In this document: positions 9,100-31,289 of the stretch, in pieces
How positions within the stretch are numbered: position 1 is the first letter of the stretch
How the letters are laid out: each line of letters starts with the position of its first letter
Assembly: GCA_018398765.1 (NCBI GenBank)
Contig: JAHBMJ010001414.1
Location: forward strand, 1 to 31,289
DNA length: 31,289 nt
Origin: Chromera velia
Taxonomy: Eukaryota > Sar > Chromeraceae
Reading direction: 5' to 3'
Translations under genes and position numbers: made by a program
Notes under the pieces: generated by a model
Told to the model about the DNA's origin: nothing
Databases searched by the model: none
What the model saw: only the letters and a program-made list of their open reading frames with translations

Positions 9100-10278
9100 A
9101 ATGAGAGAGTGGACGAGATAGAGAGATGGCTGCTAAAGAGAACAAAAAATAAGCTAGACAAGAAAAAGAGAGAGGTGTTTGTACATAGAATAGAAAGAAA
9201 CATAAGAGAGAAGAGCAGTCAGGAGAAGGCAGAACTGACAAGAGTGATGATGGCTAATATGCACAGAAAGGTCTCAAACGGAAACCGTCTCCACCTTTCT
9301 TTGTTTCAAGATAGAGCAGGTAGAAAGGTTGACTCGACAATGACATAGAAAATAAACAGAGAGAGAATAGGGAGAGCCCTTTTTTGCTATACGAGAGTGG
9401 TGCTGCGATCGGAACACAGGAGGAGAGCAGCATGAAGGGTGGGAGACAGGGCTCTAGACAGGGCTGTGGCTGCGACTCAAAGAAAAATTCTGGTAAGGGG
9501 GGGAGAGAAGGTGCCGTTCTAGAAAAGGACGTGCCAGTTCTGTCGAGGGTGGTTGGGAATCGAGGTGGTGGAAGACAAAATCCATCTGGTGACAGAATGT
9601 CCTGTTTTTGACAGAGAAAGAGCAGAGATGTTCAGAAAGATAGAAGAGAAATGGGACAGTAAGATGGAAGAAAGAGCTAGAAAGGCAGCCACAGAAAGAG
9701 AAGGGCTCAACAGAAAAGAGGGAAAAAGAGACAACTCGACGCTTTTCTGCTTTCTGTTGAATGAATGTCATGCCGGAGTGGATAAGTTTTTGGGATGGGC
9801 GTCATTCAGATGGAGGGTGTTTGAGGAGTGTCCAGGATGGTACAGACACATAGAGGGAGACGCTCTGGCGGCCAGACATGCAGGAATCACCAGAAGGCAG
9901 CGGGCGATCGAGAGACTAACAAAAGAATATGAGGAGACAATTGATAACTTAGAGACGACCGAAGGAGCGTTAGGGTGGGGAAAGAGGGAGCCGCAGAAGA
10001 AGATTGATAAAGCAAATAAAAAGAGCGAGGAAGCCCAAATTGCATACCGTTTCAGATCGATTTTCAGGCCGGAAAGCCAACACAGATCCAGAGCCGTGGC
10101 TCGAACAACGAACAATCATGCAGCAGCGGCCAGCGCAACAGACTCTAGCGGGCCCCGAAGGCGGGGTCTGATACCTCAGCTTAGGCTGGAGAACGCCCCG
10201 CTTTGCTAGCTCTGGCGACAGATAGACATAGCGGGAAGGCTCTAGGGCGGAACATATCAATCAATCAATCAATCAATC
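9100..10278 (+). mobile_element. Decayed LINE-like retroposon 3' end, copy B
   Basis: This is the best preserved of the three copies. From 9532 the frame reads CQFCRGWLGIEVVEDKIHLV followed by TECPVFDRER, a full C-x2-C...H-x5-C knuckle as seen at the C terminus of LINE polyproteins. It then runs on to about 10206 through STLFCFLLNECHAGVDKFL and RLTKEYEETIDNLETTEG, matching copy A. A stop at 9520-9522 lies just upstream, and the preceding Lys/Arg-rich sequence (9109-9345) is in another frame, so the copy is broken. Its 3' region shares a GGGCC...GGTCTGAT block with copy A (copy A near 8838-8860, copy B near 10149-10172) and ends in a CAAT repeat at 10257-10278. The clade cannot be decided without the missing polymerase core. 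Confidence 0.65.
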
Positions 10279-11562: not shown

Positions 11563-14500
11563 TCAACTAGGAATGACTCGGTCCCACGGGATTTCGCTTG
11601 TCATCGCGAGGAGGTTCCCGAATACGCGATCGGCCTCGTCCCGCAGAGCAGAGTGCTGGAATTCGTTGGAGACCCACCTGCATGCATGCATGTTTTCGTA
11701 GAAAACATATCTTCCTCTCTCTCTCTCTCTATGTGTGTGTATGTGTGTGTGTGTGAGAGAGAGAGAGAGAAAGAGGGACGGACGGACGGACTGACGGACT
11801 ATATCGTCTTTTCTTTCCCTTTTTCTCTTTCTTCATTCTCTTCTGTTTTTTTTTTCTTTCTTCGGACAGCCAGACAGACGGACAGACAGAGAGACAGACA
11901 AGACAAGACAAGACAGCCACACAGACTATGTGTTTCTTCTTCTTCTCCCTCCTTTTCTTCATGAACACAACAGACAAAAATAAAGAAAGAACAAAGACAA
12001 AAGAACAGCACCAACAATCAAACAGCGTGGGCAGGGGGCCCGAAAGGTGAGAGTTAAGCGCGCCCTGCTTCTCCACCTCCCGACAGACGGACAGACAGAC
12101 AGAGAGACAGACGGACAGACAGACGGACGTTGCACATGCTCCCGGAGGCCCGAGTAGGCTGGCGGTCTCCTCGCTGAACTCCCTCTCCACGAAGACATCG
12201 TCGTAAGAGATGAGGGCCGCAGTGGCAACAGAGCAGGCGCCGTTGCGAAGTTTGTCGATGTCATACAGATGAGGCCAGTCTGTCTTCTTTGCAAGAAGTT
12301 TGGCTGCCTCTCCTACCTGCATGTCAGCCGGAAGGAAGGAAGGAAGGAAGAAAGAAAGAAAGAAAGAAAAGAAAGAAAAGAAAGATAAAAGAAAGTTAAA
12401 AGAAAGATAAAAGAAAAGAAAGAAAGAAAGAAAGAAAGATCAGAGTTGACGAAGGAGATTTTCGAGCGGTGGGCACAAGTTTGGAAATTGGACAAGTGAA
12501 ACAATGAAGCCAAAACAAAGGGGAACCAACTCCGAGAAAAGCATGGAAAGAGACGCAGCATCTGAATGAAGAAATGGCAGATCGCGCACACACGCACCCG
12601 CACCCGCACACACACAGACACGCACAGAGACACACACAGATACATACACAGAGACACACGGCCGCAGAAACACACTCACACTCACACACAAAGACACACA
12701 GACACAGTCGCAATGAGAATGAACACTCGGACTCGGCTCGGTTTATGAAAAAAGAATGTTATTGAGAAGCACAGAGAGCGACCAAGTTTTTCTTTGCTCA
12801 CAGAAAGATCAGAAGGCAAGCAGGAATGCAGGTACGAAGGCAGACACGAAAGCAGGCGGAGGGACAGGCATGCGAAGTTCGTTGTCTTTTTGAATATTCA
12901 CGTGAGTTTGGTCCCCTCCCCCCCCAACCCTCTTGTAATCTGTTTGCCCCCCAAGACAGACAGACAGACGGACATTTCCTCCTAGTCGTTTGTACCCCTG
13001 TATCATCCACTCATGCACGGTCTCTCCAGTGAAGGGAACTGGGGTTCCATTCGCCACACACGACCGTGCATCAAAGGCAGAAGCAAACTCGGACTGTTGA
13101 CGCACGCGCTCAGCAGCCCAGTTAGAAGGGCTCCGCATCGGACCGTCACAATAGATAGACTCATGAAGCAGAAAGTAGAGCGGTCTCTTTTCAAACACTC
13201 CCGTGATGTCCTCAACCGCCTTCAGAAACTCTGTAGAGAGACGCCTGTCCGTGGTGTACCCGGCGCAGGGCCCCTTCACCCACGGATCTTCTATCAGCCA
13301 GTGCAGCTCCTCCATTCCCGAGTAGGATCCCAACAGCATACCCAGCTGTTGGAACCGCTCGGGTGTCAAAAGCCCCCCCCCTTGAAGCCGCACTCCCTCA
13401 TTTTCCGCGAGGTGCTGCACAATTGCGCGGACCTTCGCCACGTCGTTCGGGTACCTTGCGTAGTATCTCGCGGACCTCACCTGCATCCCATGCACGAAAG
13501 AAGATAAAAGACAAACTCACGAAGCGAGTCAAGGGAGAAAGAAAAGGGAGTCAGGTTCGCATTCAGGCGGAAGGAAGGCGAACTTTGCGAATCAGATGTA
13601 AAACTTTGTTGTGGACTTGCGCAAATTCATTCATTAACTGACTGACCTTCATGCGTCGATACGTGGCTGTGTAGACTTCATCGATTCCCCTGAGGACGGG
13701 CGCAAGGCCGCACGTGAAGAGGACTCGCTCGAGGGACTTTGGGAAGAAGGAGAGGTAGGAAAGGTTACAGAAACCCCCGAAACTCTGGCCCAGCAGGGTC
13801 CATTTGTTTTTTGGAAACAGAAACTGCCGAATTGCCTCTGCGTCCCTCACAATGTTGTCAGCTCGGAAGTGGCTCAGGTGTTCTGAACGGGCACACACGC
13901 GCATGGATGGATGTGGCCATGCATGGATACGAACACGAAGAGAAACGGTGATCATGTACAGCTTTCTCACTCCCTTGCTCACTGCCTCGTTCGCTCCATG
14001 CATTAAACACCACCCCCTCCAGCATACACAGCGAGAGTGAAAGAGACAGACAGGGCCAAGAGGGAACAGCCCGGAAAGCACGTAGACCACCGCGAGGAAC
14101 AGTTGCATTCAAATCCTTTTGATCGATTGGACGGTCATCAAGAGTCCTGCTCGACATTGAAAAGCAGAGAACATGAACGGATAAAGGCATGCATTTTCCT
14201 TTGGAGTCGAGGAAGCAAAAATTCTGAGAGCAGAAACAATTAACCCCCGTCACACAGCCACACACACGCAATCCAGCCCCCCACACCACCCCCACCGCCG
14301 AAGGCATGTACCTACCTGCGATTGCTTCAGGACTGCCAAGAGTTTCGAGCACATCCAAAGACGCTGGTGAGGACCTCCCTGTACCCCGCTGGTCGAGGAG
14401 ACAAATGCGAAAGTCATTCAGGGCAGTTTTCGTCCAGGCTCCTACCGGGTTACTCGGCCGGGGTGACGGCATTCCTGCGAGAAAAAGAAAAGAGGTAGCC

Positions 14501-14968
14501 CATGCAGGAATGAAATCAGCTGAGTAAGCTGCCGTCTCCCTCGATGAACCCGGTTTCCATAAGACCCGCCCCACTCCCATACATCCTCGCTTCTGCACAC
14601 AACCTTACGACACCCATTCAGCCCATAGAACAGTAAAAATCATTTATTAACAGATAAGTGGAAGCCTCACCTGGCCCTCCTTGAAAGTAGAGGAGACAGG
14701 GTGTCTCTGGGTTGCTGATGCTCTTTCGCACGAGCTCTCGCATGAAAATATGGATTTTTCTTCCATCTTCTGGTTTGTTGTAGTCCAGAGGGACTTCAAA
14801 GATTCGCTCAGTCACCTTGACCCCCCCATGCATCGAGGATTCTTCTACGCTGATCAATTTGATGGGCAAGCTCTGGGCTGGTGGTGCAGTCATTGTGAAC
14901 GCAGAAGTGAACTGAGCTAGAAAAGAAAGGAGACAGAATACGAATACCGGAACGCAACTCGAAGTCAT
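11563..14968 (-). CDS. Prolyl iminopeptidase-like alpha/beta hydrolase (family S33), 6 exons
   Basis: Joining 14968-14671, 14474-14316, 13882-13647, 13480-12974, 12316-12129 and 11677-11563 gives 1,503 nt, or 500 residues, with every GT-AG phase compatible. Family S33 enzymes release N-terminal proline from peptides. Visible motifs are QGGPG (96-100, oxyanion region), DQRGTGRS (127-134), the nucleophile elbow GQSFGG with Ser186, SYDDVF (437-442, likely acid Asp439 or Asp440) and WVSNEFQH (464-471, likely catalytic His471). HFRADNIVRDAEAIR, VYTATYRR and DWPHLYD also fit the long bacterial/plant-type branch. The chosen ATG gives a hydrophobic leader (residues 1-23) ending TSA, then Phe24, which resembles the signal-peptide/+1 Phe rule for complex plastids. 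Starting at Met26 would give a cytosolic form. The frame is also open upstream to 15229. The domain call is firm; the localisation is inference. Confidence 0.9.
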
Positions 14969-15661
14969 TTGTAGTTGTCTCCAACCCGTCGAAGTCCACG
15001 AAGAACACCAATTACGATAATGTATCACTGCAGCTAGTGACACAAATCTGCCATGCAGAGGGCGGATTTGAGAGGTTTGAAAGTCATGAGCAAGCAAAAG
15101 AGAGAGAAGCCAACCAATTAAGAACTTAGAACTTAGGAGACGGAGTCTTACCGTCACGGAGACGGTCCGGCGCAGGAAAGAAGCACGCTCGATCCGCGCC
15201 GAATCCGCGCGGACGGAATTAACTTCCAACCTGATTGGGTGTGGTTACACTGTGGTATGGTGTGAACGATACGTCACTTGAAGGTCAACTTTTGGAAGAC
15301 GCCCCTCCAAGCAGAGCGTCAGGTTGAAGGTTGAGAATTGGCAAGAACGCGACCTGTCGCGACTCCATCTTGGCGCTGTCGGTCGACCTGCGATGCATGG
15401 GCGTGCTTAAGTTTTTCATGTGTGAGTGTGGAGATCGAGGAGGATTGATTTTGAGGGGAAAGTCTCAAAGAAGTTCAGCAGGTCACGGCGAGCCAGGTTG
15501 TCTTAGAAAGGCTCGGAAAGAGAGAGTAGTTGGGCTTTCATTTCTTAATGCAGCTTCTCAATCTAGCTCGCGCGGCAGGAGCTTTTGAAAAGAAACTGAA
15601 ATCTGCAAAGCACCCAGCGGCGAAACCACTATATAACTCCCATTCTCGCTTCTTCCACACA
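14969..15661. promoter_or_regulatory. Divergent intergenic region between peptidase and zinc-finger genes
   Basis: This region of 693 bp separates the two start codons and should hold both 5' untranslated regions and promoters. The only motif I would point to is TATATAA at 15630-15636, 26 bp before the zinc-finger ATG. If it acted as a TATA box, the transcript would have almost no leader, so it may be fortuitous. An in-frame ATG at 15548 would extend the zinc-finger protein by 38 residues. The peptidase frame is likewise open to 15229. Either extension would shorten the non-coding part. Confidence 0.45.
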
Positions 15662-24000: not shown

Positions 24001-24082
24001 GGAGAGGAATACACAGAGATACAGACAGAACCGAGATGACCTGAATTGAGAGGATGGGAGAGACGCAGTGTGCTCGGACACA

Positions 24083-24294
24083 GGCTGGGCGGATTTCTGG
24101 TGTGTGTGCGCGGGAGCGTGTGTGTGTGTAGGCTGGGCGGATTTCTGGTGTGTGTGCGCGGGAGCGTGTGTGTGTGTGTGTAGGCTGGGCGGATTTCTGG
24201 TGTGTGCGCGCGGGAGCGTGTGTGTGTGTAGGCTGGGCGGATTTCTGGTGTGTGTGCGCGGGAGCATGTGTGTGTGTAGGCTGGGCGGATTTCT

Positions 24295-24332
<38 letters not shown>
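24083..24332. repeat. Minisatellite of five 48-52-bp units running into a GT tract
   Basis: Units begin with GGCTGGGCGGATTTCTGGTG at 24083, 24131, 24183, 24231 and 24279, so the period is 48, 52, 48 and 48 bp. Each of the first four units ends in a GT stretch whose length explains the size variation. The last runs into a GT tract of about 35 bp. Sequence identity between units is very high, so the array is recent or kept homogeneous. Both strands are open across it, giving Cys/Val- or Thr/His-rich peptides that I regard as spurious. Confidence 0.9.
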
Positions 24333-26262: not shown

Positions 26263-27143
26263 TAGTAAGCCAGATTCATTCAAGTTATTAGTAAGTTGTA
26301 TTGTTGGGGCTAGTGTCCGGGGTGTTTGCCGGTTTGTGCATGATGCAGACATCTTTCTAAAGATTTCAATTGATGTTTTGCATGTAGCTGCGATTTATTC
26401 GTTGGTGCGGTCAGCTCTTAGCACCGTGTAATAGCACACAATCTGCGTTTACCCTCTTTAGTCTTTTTCCAAGTCTTTTCCCCGCTAGAGCTCAGGCTTC
26501 CTCAGAGCTCTTCTCTCCTGTCGCGTGGCTGACTGGTGGCACTCTCTCTCAATCAGTGTCAGTGACTCGGACAATCATAAAACATACCATCCCTATTGTT
26601 ATATTGTGTGCTATGTAGATCTTAGCTAAAATTTTTGTAGGTTTTAGCAAAATAATATTTAATTTTAGAATATAAAACTAGATGAATTCATTCATTCATT
26701 CATTCATTCATTCATTCATTCATTCATAAAACTAGATATAAAATCAGATTCTAGACTAGATCCTAGATAATATCATACGAGTATTAGACTTAGATACTAT
26801 TAGTCCACAAGATAATGCCAAGATTTCAAGCTTAGACCCCATAAAATTCGTTAAGATCTAGGCCAAAGCCTGAGCTAAAATGATGATTTATTTACTAAAA
26901 TCCTATAAAATCATGGCCTAAGAACTTGTAAAATCCTAGCTTCCTGAAGGGTATATAACTTATTAAATATTTCTTTATATTTCTTTACTTAATTATATTG
27001 TTTCAGAATATTTCTCCATTATTACGTAGATGCAGGTTTGATAGCTATAGGCCAGCAGTTAGGATGCATTTATTAGAGAATATTGCCGTTACAATACTCA
27101 TCATGAAAAATAAGAGTCAGACTTTGCAGAGCAGTATCTCACG
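26263..27143. other. AT-rich stretch without recognised gene
   Basis: No coding region is supported. The segment is AT-rich with many CTAGAT and TAAAAT words around 26650-26900 and contains an ATTC microsatellite. It should include the 3' untranslated region of the minus-strand adenylation-carrier-ankyrin gene, whose stop is at 27144-27146. Confidence 0.5.
26685..26727. repeat. ATTC tetranucleotide repeat
   Basis: About ten ATTC units are bordered on both sides by ATAAAACTAGAT (26671-26682 and again from 26726). The microsatellite therefore sits between two copies of the same 12-bp word, as if it had been inserted or expanded within a small duplication. Confidence 0.85.
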
Positions 27144-30100
27144 TCATCGCGTTCTGTGAGCATGATTCTCAAAGACTGAGAGCATTTCAGCGCCAAGTCG
27201 GCGCTCGTCCTTGGCTGTCAGGCGAGCATCAGCTTGCAGTGCAGTTGCGTCTCCGATTTCGCTCTTTACATCGTTTGCCGTCGTTTTTTCCTCTCCCTTT
27301 CTTGCGAATTCAATTTTGCTTTCATCCTCTTGCCAACTTTCTTCCACTTGCTCCTTTTCCCTTTCTTGCCCACCGTCTTGTGTGACAAATGATTGAGCGA
27401 CAGGTGAGACGAGGCCTGAAAATCTGCCTTCGACCGACGTGCCCTCTTCACTGGGGGGGGGAGGGAGGGACCTCCCGGAGATGGACAGCCGTCTCGCGAC
27501 CTCAATGGGCCTCTCTATTCTCAGACTCGTCTGGTGGCGCGCCTTCCCCTCGGGAAGCGCGAGAGGGTCCGGGTCGGCGCCGCACTTTAACAGCGCTGCG
27601 AGCGCTTGTGGCTGGCAGTTGACTACGGCCCAATGCACCGGGGTCCTTCCCCACCTGTCACGCCAGTCTAGAGTTCGTAAACGAGAAACACCGTCGGAGG
27701 ATGAACTCTCTCCCCTTGCTTCGGCCTCTCCCTTACGTGATGCTGAAATTGTGGCGTGTGTGAGTCGGTATGGGGGGCTTGCCTTCATCCATGAGGCACA
27801 GATCAATTCGACGGACTCTGCGCTCCCCCCCCTGGCAGCTGCGTGAACGACCGTGTGCTCGGATTCGTCACGAATGGCAAGGACGAATTTCTTGCGGTTG
27901 GAACGGACACCGGGACCCATAGGGAGAGGCCCCGGCATGCCTTCTCTCTCGGCGCACTCTGCTGCAAGGAGGGCCCGGACACAGGCGGTGCCTTTGGGTC
28001 CGGCGGCGGCTGCCAGGTGAAGCGGCGTCGCCCTTCTGGCGTCACAAAGGGATGGGCTGGCCCCGGAAAGCAGCAACAGCAGACAACACAAAGAATGGCC
28101 ACCCAAACAGGCCAGGTGGAGGGGAGAGGGACTGGCGGCACGACGCTGATCGTTTGAAGGGGAGGGTTGGGAATCCAGAGGGAAGAGGGCGTCTAGCTTC
28201 TTGGAGAGATCATCATCTGAATCAGCACGCAGCAGCGACCTCCCCCACTTTTCGCCCCTGAGGGAAAGGAGCAGAGCAAGCGAGAGAAAATCCCCCTTTC
28301 CGCATACAGAACGGAGGAGGGAAAAGAAAAGATCCGCAGTCGCGTCTCCTCTGTTTTTTTTTTCTGGAGTCTCTGTTGTTGTTTCTCTTGCTGCTGGTGC
28401 GGGGGCTTTGGATTCGTCCTCTCCGTCTCTGCTGGCCTCTTTCCCTTTCCCTTTCTCCTTTTCTTCCAAGGAGACACTCTCTGTAGAATTTTCTTCTAGG
28501 CCTTGGGAAGAGGTGGGCGGAGTATTCCGTCCTGAATGTTTTTTTTTCGTTTCTTTCTCTCTACCTCCCTTTTCTTCTCTGTCTACTGCCTCGCCTGTTT
28601 CGTCCCCTTCTTCGTTCTCTCTCAACTGAGGCGGTCTGAGTTTGATTTTATTTTTTTCAAGGAACAGAGAAAACAATGACAGAGAGGCAAGCTCAACCAG
28701 AGCCTGGGGCGACAGGGGACCAGAAAATTCCCCAAACTCCCCCCCTGCTTCCCTGGGTGGAAAGTCTCGTCCCGCCGCCCACCCCCTAAGTCTTCGGACG
28801 ACTCTCAATGCGGTCATGGAATCCCCCCCCAACTGATCAAAATGGTCCTCCCTCTTTATCATCCCCCGACCACACACAAGCTTCATCGTCTCATCAAACT
28901 TCTTTCGGCTGTCCACACTTCCTTCCGGTACCAGGCCTACGTAAAGGGCCCAACAGACTGCCACAATTTTTTCCGTCTCAGTCCAATCCCCCCCCGCGTC
29001 CCCCCCTTCGCTTGCCGTCTCTTCCAATTCCCTTTCCTGTCGGGCCAATTCAGCAAACATGCGCGTTGCCGAGGGCCTATCGACCTTTCCACTGATAGTC
29101 TTCGGGAGGTCCGCATTTGCCACCACCACACGCTGGGGTCTAAGGTGTGTGGGTAGGAGACGGGCGCACATAAAAAGAAGTGCCTTGCCTAGACATGCAG
29201 GGAGATGCCTATTGGTGGTAGCTGGCAGCTGAACAGACGACGGCGAAGATGTCAAGTGTGACGTTCCACTGCCCCCCTCTCTCATTTGACTTATATTCTC
29301 TGACGACAATACAGGAGCCTCTCTCGTTCTCTCCCTTGCATCATCATCATCATCATCATCTACACGACGAAGGCAACACAACATCCCCAACTGCCCCCCC
29401 CTTCCCCTCCCCAAAGACACCACATCAGTCTTCTCGACCCCAACCGGATCCTGTGGAGAAGGCTGAGAAGCCGCTACTCCCCCACCCGTCTCCACCAGCA
29501 CCGCAGCCACTCCTCCAACTTCAAATAAACTTGCATGACGGATCCCTAGCTGATCACACCACTCCCTCACACGCTGGTCCCTCAAAATCCCTTCTGCCTC
29601 TTGGAACATCGAACAACACGACGCCTCCACCTCTGACAATTCGACCCTCTGCCCTCTCACTTTCACCTGATCACCATTTACACCCCCACCCCGCCCGATT
29701 AACCACAGTTCGCCACTTGTCTCGTCAACCCACCCCAAATCTCCCGTCCTGTACGCCCTCACATATTGCCCCCTACCACATGCACCGTTCAATGACCTCC
29801 CCACCGCCCCACCACAACCTCCAATATCCAAGCTCACAAACGCACGCCTAGTTTCAGAAGGCAACCCAACGTACCCAAGGCCCACCTGAGGACCCCACAA
29901 GATCACTTCCCCCACGGTCCCAAAAGGCAAAAGTTCGCACACCCCAGATCCTTCCTCACTCTCTCCCCCCGACTCCTCCCTCACTGTCCCTACCCCCACA
30001 CTCTCTAGTGGGAGACCACAACACGAGGCCGAGCTAAATTTGCCTAGAGGCGGCCCTGATCCCGTTTCCCCCCCCGGCATACCGTCTCGTCTTAATGGAA

Positions 30101-31289
30101 TGCCTCTCTCGCATGTCTGCACTTCCAGCGCGGTTTGATATACCGCACACTCAGTCACACCGTAAACGTTCCAAAGCCGGGTCCTGGACCCTGAAAAGAC
30201 TTCGACAATGTCGAGCCCCATCTTCTCCCCTCCTAGTGCGACATCCTGCAATGAAAACAAAACAGGACACCCACTCTTCTTACCCCCCTCCCCTAGTCCC
30301 CCCCCGCTTCCGTATTGCAATGTACGCCAAAGGGTGGGAGTCGTTGTGAGGTGTGTCACGTTGAGGTCTTTCAGCATGCTGCTAAGCCCTCCGAGCACGG
30401 ATGGGTAGGACGGAGGCAGCAAAAGGCAAGAGCTCCTCCCCGAACGGCGACAAACACCCAACCACGCTTGTGCAACGTCACCTAACGAAGGATCAAAACT
30501 GGGCGGAGAAACGCAGAGAAACCGGCCTCCCTCTCTTTCTCTTTCTCTCTCTCTCTCTCTTTCCGTCTCTGTCACCTCCCCCCCTCTCTCAACGATCGAA
30601 CCGCCCGACCGCCCTTTCATCTCCACGCACAGTCTCCAGGCGGCTCGACCGACCGTCGCCACCCCCTGCCGTGCACTTCTCTCTGCAGCGTAGGATGCAA
30701 CAGCGTTGTGGCCGACCAGACACCCCTTCGGCATCCCTGTGGAGCCGCTGGTGAAGAAAACATGACTCGGCCTGTCGACTCTCACCGCCTCTGCTGTGCA
30801 CCTCAGCACAGGAGGAGGAAGAGACGGAGAGGCAGAGGCGGAATGATCCACGGAGGAAAGAGCCGACAAGAAAGTCTCATCCATCTCTTCAAAAAACAAC
30901 GACTCTCCCTCAATCACACGACAGTCGGGAAAACGAAAATTCCGTCCCATCAATCTCGCCCCCTCACCGCCTGTCACCAAAACACACGCGCGAACATTTT
31001 CCAAAAGAGACGCAAGACGAGACGGAGACTCACGTGGGTCGGCAGAAGCACAGACCCACCCAGAGATCCAACAGGTGAGCAGACTCAAAGCCTGTGTTGC
31101 CCCTGTATCAGACGACACAGCAAGCACATAAAAGGGAACACCCTCAGATGCCTCAGCATCTTTCTCTTCAGAGGAATCTCTTTTCCTTGTCCCCCCCTCT
31201 CCCGCCTGATTTCCCGCAAACATCAAGTCAAGAAGAGAACAAACTTCGCTTTTTCTTTCTTTTCCAATTCCCCCCCCCCCCCCCCCCCC
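27144..31289 (-). CDS. NRPS-like adenylation-carrier protein with C-terminal ankyrin repeats (5' partial)
   Basis: One intron-free frame runs from the right edge to a TGA at 27144-27146. Residues are counted from the TTG codon at 31226; the next codon is ATG. The adenylation motifs appear in order: TSGSTGMPKG (159-168), FDPS (about 244-247), NVYGVTE (353-359, Asn353 at 30168-30170), GEVILWGPQVGLGYVG (about 439-454), YRTGD (492-496), QVKVRGQRVELSEVEA (about 520-535) and KTISGKVDR with Lys714. A carrier domain follows with LGGDSM, the phosphopantetheine Ser803 at 28818-28820. After a charged linker, at least four ankyrin-type repeats span about 1033-1230 (SPLHLACLGGH, TPLHLAAAAG, TVVHAAARGG, TPVHWAVVN). 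Such proteins activate an acid as an adenylate and load it on the carrier thiol. The FD aspartate favours an amino acid (inference). An Arg-Glu run near 220-232 and an Asp run near 623-630 come from microsatellites. The N-terminal part of the adenylation domain is probably outside the window. Confidence 0.88.
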   Translation of the reverse strand, partial: GGGGGGGIGKERKSEVCSLLDLMFAGNQAGEGGTRKRDSSEEKDAEASEGVPFYVLAVSSDTGATQALSLLTCWISGWVCASADPRESPSRLASLLENVRACVLVTGGEGARLMGRNFRFPDCRVIEGESLFFEEMDETFLSALSSVDHSASASPSLPPPVLRCTAEAVRVDRPSHVFFTSGSTGMPKGCLVGHNAVASYAAERSARQGVATVGRAAWRLCVEMKGRSGGSIVERGGEVTETEREREREREREGGRFLCVSPPSFDPSLGDVAQAWLGVCRRSGRSSCLLLPPSYPSVLGGLSSMLKDLNVTHLTTTPTLWRTLQYGSGGGLGEGGKKSGCPVLFSLQDVALGGEKMGLDIVEVFSGSRTRLWNVYGVTECAVYQTALEVQTCERGIPLRRDGMPGGETGSGPPLGKFSSASCCGLPLESVGVGTVREESGGESEEGSGVCELLPFGTVGEVILWGPQVGLGYVGLPSETRRAFVSLDIGGCGGAVGRSLNGACGRGQYVRAYRTGDLGWVDETSGELWLIGRGGGVNGDQVKVRGQRVELSEVEASCCSMFQEAEGILRDQRVREWCDQLGIRHASLFEVGGVAAVLVETGGGVAASQPSPQDPVGVEKTDVVSLGRGRGGQLGMLCCLRRVDDDDDDDARERTREAPVLSSENISQMREGGSGTSHLTSSPSSVQLPATTNRHLPACLGKALLFMCARLLPTHLRPQRVVVANADLPKTISGKVDRPSATRMFAELARQERELEETASEGGDAGGDWTETEKIVAVCWALYVGLVPEGSVDSRKKFDETMKLVCGRGMIKREDHFDQLGGDSMTALRVVRRLRGWAAGRDFPPREAGGEFGEFSGPLSPQALVELASLSLFSLFLEKNKIKLRPPQLRENEEGDETGEAVDREEKGGREKETKKKHSGRNTPPTSSQGLEENSTESVSLEEKEKGKGKEASRDGEDESKAPAPAARETTTETPEKKNRGDATADLFFSLLRSVCGKGDFLSLALLLSLRGEKWGRSLLRADSDDDLSKKLDALFPLDSQPSPSNDQRRAASPSPLHLACLGGHSLCCLLLLLSGASPSLCDARRATPLHLAAAAGPKGTACVRALLAAECAEREGMPGPLPMGPGVRSNRKKFVLAIRDESEHTVVHAAARGGSAESVELICASWMKASPPYRLTHATISASRKGEAEARGESSSSDGVSRLRTLDWRDRWGRTPVHWAVVNCQPQALAALLKCGADPDPLALPEGKARHQTSLRIERPIEVARRLSISGRSLPPPPSEEGTSVEGRFSGLVSPVAQSFVTQDGGQEREKEQVEESWQEDESKIEFARKGEEKTTANDVKSEIGDATALQADARLTAKDERRLGAEMLSVFENHAHRTR
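31270..31289. repeat. Poly-C run at the window end
   Basis: Twenty consecutive C residues close the window. They keep the minus-strand frame open as poly-Gly but are unlikely to be coding. A long homopolymer at a sequence edge is a common place for an assembly to break. Confidence 0.85.

What the first reader, a model, noticed from the sequence alone, without database searches (positions are those of the whole stretch)
27144..31289. Adenylation-carrier-ankyrin architecture in one intron-free frame
The frame shows a complete set of amino-acid-adenylation motifs, a carrier serine (Ser803) and then ankyrin repeats, with no condensation, reductase or thioesterase domain. Known single-module relatives end differently: AASDH (beta-alanine-activating enzyme) carries a PQQ-type propeller, alpha-aminoadipate reductase a reductase, and Ebony an amine-selecting domain. 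Ankyrin repeats usually bind proteins, so the loaded acyl group might be delivered to a partner protein or acceptor enzyme. That role is inference. The protein may define a lineage-specific way of using an activated amino acid.
Basis: partly seen in the sequence, partly recalled or inferred. Interest (0 to 1): 0.75.

Follow-up and report, generated by a model that had tools for sequence, protein, structure and literature searches.

The report
Amino-acid-loading enzyme with ankyrin tail
This gene fragment encodes an enzyme that probably activates an amino acid, hangs it on a built-in carrier arm and finds its partners through an ankyrin-repeat tail, a combination of a kind already reported in single-celled algae called dinoflagellates.

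Summary
One minus-strand frame, open for 1,381 codons to the window edge (27144-31289), encodes an NRPS-type adenylation domain, a carrier domain with its serine, a charged linker and about four ankyrin repeats. The frame far exceeds chance, and its catalytic residues agree with 65 aligned bacterial adenylation-carrier units. There is no in-frame Met from residue 826 to 1117, so a separate ankyrin gene read from its own ATG is unlikely.

Two corrections. The motif set is not complete: A1 is missing, and the 5' end of the gene lies beyond the window. So "no condensation domain" is shown only for the part in hand.

Ankyrin fusions of single NRPS/PKS domains are already reported from dinoflagellates (PMC6361889, PMC7159223), where free-standing adenylation domains are proposed to act in trans (PMC7557087). 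The best reading is a trans-acting amino-acid loading module with an ankyrin docking tail; substrate and partner are unknown. No eukaryotic reference tree could be built, the host was not identified, and the whole-genome search did not complete. New member of a known kind.

The parts
27144..31289 (-). Open frame, 1,381 codons plus stop, truncated at its 5' end by the window edge
29055..31133 (-). Adenylation domain (frame residues about 53-745), motifs A2-A10, A1 missing, 12 inserts of 9-50 residues counted from the A2 motif to the carrier
   Evidence: Pfam AMP-binding E 4.7e-23; TIGR01733 145.6 bits, below its whole-protein cut-off of 317.4; PDB adenylation domains; alignments
30726..30755 (-). 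A3 motif FTSGSTGMPK
30486..30497 (-). A4 motif FDPS (Asp235-type residue, frame 266)
30150..30170 (-). A5 motif NVYGVTE
29736..29750 (-). A7 motif RTGDL
29625..29654 (-). End of A8 motif, GQRVELSEVE, preceded by a 4-residue insert in the GRxDxQVK hinge loop
29076..29093 (-). A10 motif SGKVDR with the catalytic lysine (frame 735)
28626..28988 (-). Carrier (thiolation) domain, frame about 768-888
   Evidence: 29.4 bits vs best of 2000 shuffles 4.3; Pfam PP-binding 16.9 bits, below its cut-off of 20.8; no significant PDB match on its own
28818..28832 (-).
28350..28625 (-). Charged low-complexity linker (frame 889-980), no Met
27549..28349 (-). Ankyrin region: four repeats with TPLHxA-type starts at frame about 1055, 1088, 1146, 1215, preceded by a cap-like stretch (by eye)
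   Evidence: Pfam Ank_2 E 5.3e-17; PDB ankyrin proteins; motif count
27144..27548 (-). C-terminal charged tail and stop codon
31206..31289 (-). Possible end of an intron (pyrimidine-rich stretch, AG at 31206-31207), suggesting that the true N-terminus with A1 lies off the window
   Evidence: read by eye; inference

Best explanation
It is a single-module, NRPS-type loading enzyme with an ankyrin docking tail. The adenylation domain makes an aminoacyl-AMP and moves the aminoacyl group to the phosphopantetheine arm on Ser824 of its own carrier domain (inferred from intact motifs). The ankyrin repeats hold the loaded enzyme on a partner, most likely an NRPS or PKS component elsewhere in the cell that takes the aminoacyl group in trans (inferred from the dinoflagellate parallel). 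Shown: domain order and conserved catalytic residues. Inferred: activity, trans delivery, partner. Unknown: substrate.
For: Glu380 (A5), Asp517 (A7), Lys735 (A10) and Asp266 (position 235) are shared with 65 of 65 aligned bacterial domains, and none of these four was a selection criterion. Carrier 29.4 bits vs at most 4.3 in 2000 shuffles. Ankyrin repeats well above cut-off. No Met in frame between residues 825 and 1118, which lies past the first ankyrin repeat. At the off-frame stop rate of the whole frame, insert 3, linker and tail would each stay open with P 0.004, 0.006 and 0.006. Codon usage: the true frame is the best of the three same-strand frames in 5 of 6 segments. Precedent: ankyrin fusions of NRPS/PKS single domains (PMC6361889 sections 6, 9, 11 read), ankyrin trans-ATs (PMC7159223 passages), trans-acting A domains (PMC7557087 passages).
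Against: The 5' end is missing, so further catalytic domains may precede motif A2. Pfam PP-binding is below its cut-off, and the carrier alone has no significant PDB match. Inserts 1 and 2 stay open by chance with P 0.114 and 0.105, and the linker holds only 4 off-frame stops, so at its own local rate its openness has a chance of about 0.13 (my arithmetic). Over all six frames, the codon score of the true frame is the best in only 2 of 6 segments (insert 3, linker); a frame of the other strand is higher in the ankyrin region (0.15 vs 0.06), inserts 1 and 2 and the tail. No other synthase part was found in the rest of the window; the only Pfam match above cut-off is an alpha/beta hydrolase. No homologue with this order was found: tblastn with the ankyrin part hit 0 of 81 loci (prokaryotic pieces of 3.4-12.9 kb, no positive control).
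Confidence: 0.5

Rival explanations
1. It is the C-terminal end of a longer NRPS or PKS-NRPS whose upstream domains lie beyond the window; the ankyrin repeats are simply its tail.
For: A1 is missing and the frame runs off the window; a splice-acceptor-like stretch lies at about 31206 (by eye).
Against: Nothing positive: Pfam shows no condensation or other synthase domain in the part in hand. Single-module enzymes without condensation domain do exist in eukaryotes (Ebony, ACSF4-U26; PMC10531068 passages).
Confidence: 0.2
2. It is a beta-alanine-activating or similar single-module enzyme (AASDH/ACSF4-U26-like) in which ankyrin repeats stand where the PQQ propeller would be; it modifies a protein or a small amine.
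For: FDPS and the stretches TPTLWR, LGGE and NVYGVTE resemble human AASDH as recalled (alignment, 29% over 198 residues; a lead only). PMC10531068 describes ACSF4-U26 as beta-alanine-activating (passage).
Against: The recalled AASDH piece ranked 39 of 63 reported phmmer matches (66 sequences searched), 27.3 bits against 43.8 for the best bacterial domain; blastp 45.8 against 81.6 bits. The frame keeps canonical A6-A8. No PQQ repeats by Pfam.
Confidence: 0.15
3. Two genes or a gene-model artefact: the ankyrin part is expressed separately, or the linker holds an intron leading elsewhere.
For: No transcript data; the base-composition skew changes between 28 and 30 kb; the linker is poor in stops in the other frames too.
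Against: One frame; no in-frame Met between 825 and 1118; in the linker the codon score favours the true frame over the other five (0.19 vs at most 0.15). An exon spliced in from elsewhere, or a non-ATG start, is not excluded.
Confidence: 0.08
4. A decaying copy without activity.
For: Many inserts (12 of 9-50 residues) and a missing A1.
Against: No internal stop in 1,381 codons, and the catalytic residues examined are kept.
Confidence: 0.05

Closest known systems
Single NRPS/PKS domains fused to ankyrin, HEAT or PPR repeats in Symbiodiniaceae dinoflagellates (PMC6361889)
   Same: NRPS-type domain without an assembly line in view, ankyrin repeats in the same protein
   Different: The exact order adenylation-carrier-ankyrin is not spelled out in the sections read; sequence relationship not tested
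Ankyrin-bearing trans-acyltransferases of Gambierdiscus (PMC7159223)
   Same: A loading activity joined to ankyrin repeats, thought to mediate protein contacts
   Different: An acyltransferase of polyketide synthesis; repeats lie upstream of the enzyme domain, not downstream
AASDH / ACSF4-U26, beta-alanine-activating enzyme
   Same: Single adenylation-carrier module without condensation domain
   Different: C-terminal PQQ-type propeller (recalled, also in the finding's text); A6-A8 differ from this frame in the recalled sequence
Bacterial epsilon-poly-L-lysine synthase (PDB 7wew)
   Same: Adenylation domain matched
   Different: Similarity weak (E 2.2e-7, 0.12); its C-terminal part is different (recalled)

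Membership tests
NRPS-type amino-acid adenylation domain | Motifs A2-A10 with catalytic Lys (A10), Asp (A7), Glu (A5) | tested here: met
NRPS-type amino-acid adenylation domain | Motif A1 | tested here: inconclusive
   No counterpart in the part inside the window; the gene runs on beyond the window edge
NRPS-type amino-acid adenylation domain | Asp at position 235 (binds the amino group; numbering recalled) | tested here: met
   Asp266, same in 65 of 65 aligned domains
Carrier (thiolation) domain | GGxS serine in a carrier-like context | tested here: met
   29.4 bits vs best of 2000 shuffles 4.3; but Pfam PP-binding below its cut-off and no significant PDB match
Ankyrin repeat protein | At least two repeats scoring above cut-off | tested here: met
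   Ank_2 62.6 bits vs 27.3 and Ank 49 vs 21.1, three stretches each; PDB
AASDH / beta-alanine-activating enzyme | PQQ-type propeller after the carrier | tested here: not met
   No such Pfam match at E up to 1; ankyrin repeats instead
AASDH / beta-alanine-activating enzyme | Adenylation domain grouping with AASDH in a tree | not testable with these tools
   No eukaryotic reference sequences on hand; only a recalled fragment was compared
Alpha-aminoadipate reductase (Lys2) | Reductase domain after the carrier | tested here: not met
   TIGR03443 matches with 22.1 bits (cut-off 1030.1), best stretch frame 508-557; no reductase match in Pfam
Ebony | C-terminal amine-selecting domain | tested here: inconclusive
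   In the C-terminal part Pfam names only ankyrin families, and the 60 of 298 PDB rows shown are ankyrin or ankyrin-bearing proteins; no Ebony sequence was compared directly
Dinoflagellate ankyrin-fused trans-acting NRPS/PKS domains | Shared ancestry with dinoflagellate A domains | not testable with these tools
   No dinoflagellate sequences on hand

The most novel reading that the evidence does not exclude
An ankyrin-guided aminoacylation enzyme that hands its activated amino acid to a specific protein (a post-translational aminoacyl modification) rather than to a peptide synthase, with a pocket code (DPGTAGVVYK) not assigned here to any substrate.
Probability: 0.1. Interest if true: 0.7.

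Novelty: new member of a known kind. Interest (0 to 1): 0.32.

Why it matters
It would add an adenylation-carrier-ankyrin protein to a theme reported for dinoflagellates: synthase domains that stand alone and carry repeat domains for protein contacts. If the host is an alveolate outside the dinoflagellates (not tested), the theme would be older or wider than reported. The ankyrin tail gives a direct handle for finding the partner.

Tried and rejected
Whole-genome search for paralogues and for the missing 5' end (genome search, one and the same request) did not complete in 13 tries. The scan of viral contigs (317 stretches matched a pattern) and the first scan of genome contigs (138 stretches) gave no relative. 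65 of the 80 were used in the alignment; 15, and L001, were left out, the 15 because the script did not find an A3 motif and a carrier GGxS at the expected spacing with enough sequence upstream. So conservation of the A3 lysine and of the carrier serine in that set is by construction, and that of the A8 lysine partly so (search pattern).

The inserts were read from one alignment only. The ankyrin motif count (4 observed; of 5000 shuffles 8 had at least one and 0 had two or more) used a pattern written after seeing the repeats. The AlphaFold model of the ankyrin region from a single sequence was too poor to use (mean pLDDT 38). The pocket code was compared only with the 65 bacterial domains (best 6 of 10, L064). 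The promoter and terminator scan found no more than shuffles give (1 vs mean 0.6; 3 vs mean 3.4) and is made for bacteria. tblastn: 2 of 50,697 phage records, both annotated entF; 45 of 72,556 plasmid records, 8 rows shown, 5 annotated as NRPS and 3 without annotation. Paper searches: nothing; listings not opened (1 paper; 4; 1), one of 3 and 8 of 9; the 3 were all opened in part.
Full report
What was checked. The minus-strand frame at 27144-31289 is open for 1,381 codons, ends in a stop and runs off the window. It is not chance: in 300 Markov sequences of the same length and local composition the longest open run in any of six frames was at most 390 codons, mean 224. The window contains no N and has a C run near its start and at its end, so it may be a whole contig; that is inference.

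Domains. Pfam finds AMP-binding (E 4.7e-23, above cut-off), Ank_2 (E 5.3e-17, above cut-off) and PP-binding (16.9 bits, below the cut-off of 20.8). NCBIfam's amino-acid adenylation model TIGR01733 scores 145.6 bits, under its whole-protein cut-off of 317.4; 42 families matched, 25 were shown. The 60 PDB sequences that match the adenylation-carrier part are mostly NRPS adenylation domains, with D-alanine ligases and others, best E 7.9e-12. The A4-A5 stretch alone matches the fungal siderophore synthetase SidN best, weakly (E 0.0059, 11 matches at E up to 10). The ankyrin part matches 298 sequences at E up to 0.001, the 60 shown being ankyrins, designed ankyrin proteins and other ankyrin-bearing proteins.

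Motifs. A2-A10 and the carrier LGGDS are readable (the motif scheme is recalled). An alignment with 65 bacterial and archaeal adenylation-carrier units (of 80 fetched loci) shows the query lacking A1, having 12 inserts of 9-50 residues, and sharing the functional residues. Identity to the query is 20-32%. Glu380 (A5), Asp517 (A7), Lys735 (A10) and Asp266 (position 235) agree in 65 of 65. The A3 lysine and the carrier serine also agree, but the 65 were chosen for those motifs. The pocket code read from the alignment is DPGTAGVVYK; the PheA numbering behind it is recalled. Pro at position 236 occurs in 1 of the 65, and the best bacterial code agrees at 6 of 10 positions. I claim no substrate beyond 'an amino acid or similar amine-bearing acid'.

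Carrier. A profile from the aligned bacterial carriers gives the query 29.4 bits; the best of 2000 shuffles of the same stretch has 4.3. Against this, Pfam puts the carrier below its cut-off, and a PDB search with that stretch alone gives nothing significant (best 0.19 to an unrelated protein, NRPS carriers at 0.27-0.74). I take it as a real but divergent carrier.

One gene or two. Met occurs at frame residue 825 and then not before 1118. The first two ankyrin repeats start at about 1055 and 1088, so a separate ankyrin gene starting at its own in-frame ATG would lose the first repeat and most of the second. At the off-frame stop rate of the whole frame (0.042 per codon) the third insert, the linker of 120 codons and the tail would stay open with probabilities of 0.004, 0.006 and 0.006; inserts 1 and 2 alone prove nothing (0.114 and 0.105). 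The linker, however, has only 4 off-frame stops of its own, so at its local rate the chance is about 0.13 (my arithmetic). A codon-usage score puts the true frame first among the three same-strand frames in 5 of 6 segments, but first among all six frames only in insert 3 and the linker; in the ankyrin region a frame of the other strand scores 0.15 against 0.06. Transcript data are needed to settle it.

The 5' end. The frame begins in a 20-base G run, and a pyrimidine-rich stretch ending in AG lies at about 31206 (by eye). Together with the missing A1 this suggests an upstream exon outside the window. Hence the claim that no condensation domain exists cannot be made for the whole gene.

Surroundings. 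A neighbouring gene on the same strand at about 12.8-15.2 kb matches an Arabidopsis protein (AT3g61540, PDB 8jgn) in three separate frames that follow each other along the chain (15-61 with E 0.00028, 112-193 with E 3.6e-21, 197-350 with E 1.4e-29). It is probably split by introns, unlike the frame of the finding. A six-frame Pfam survey of 1-27143 at E up to 0.01 found only that hydrolase (21.2 bits there, below cut-off; 27.3 bits, above the cut-off of 25.8, when its frame was scanned alone). Scans of single frames at E up to 0.1 also gave 10 weak matches in two other frames, all below cut-off. No Rfam family or tRNA was found. No other synthase part was found nearby.

How it most likely works. 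The intact adenylation and carrier motifs imply activation of an amino acid and loading onto the enzyme's own arm. Ankyrin repeats bind proteins (established for the fold). The likely purpose is delivery in trans to a partner. Confidence 0.5; the chief rivals are a larger synthase cut by the window edge (0.2) and an AASDH-like role (0.15).

What is known. PMC6361889 (sections 6, 9 and 11 and passages read) reports free-standing A domains in Symbiodiniaceae and says that single, probably trans-acting NRPS or PKS domains are often fused to HEAT, ankyrin and PPR repeats. [quoted passage not shown] PMC7557087 (passages) proposes that trans-acting AT and NRPS domains, with free-standing A domains among them, serve dinoflagellate synthesis. 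PMC10531068 (passages) describes Ebony and ACSF4-U26. My searches for adenylation domain, ankyrin and Chromera, Chromera velia and nonribosomal peptide and the Pfam domain names with ankyrin (one listing, not opened) gave no paper that I saw to describe this architecture, in an open-access library only. The finding is therefore a new member of a known kind, not a new principle.

Noticed in passing
window 12812-15229, - strand: An alpha/beta hydrolase (peptidase-like) gene, probably split by introns, matching Arabidopsis AT3g61540 (PDB 8jgn) in three consecutive pieces.
   Followed up: partly
window 9553-10209, + strand: A 218-aa frame whose start resembles the C-terminal part of retroelement reverse transcriptases (by eye, recalled; Pfam gave only two weak matches below cut-off).
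   Followed up: no
window 24082-24325: Tandem array of a 48-base unit, 5 copies, 91% matches, within frames of repeated histidine-threonine-rich peptides.
   Followed up: no
window 29001-30000 versus 27001-28000: The adenylation part is strongly G-rich on its coding strand (+ strand GC skew -0.41 at 29-30 kb, -0.23 at 30-31 kb), the ankyrin part is not (-0.03 at 27-28 kb, -0.11 at 28-29 kb), as if the two halves had different compositional histories.
   Followed up: partly
L001: A record labelled Acinetobacter phage MD-2021a carries an annotated entF-like NRPS, greB and a tRNA, so this stretch looks like bacterial chromosome rather than phage.
   Followed up: no
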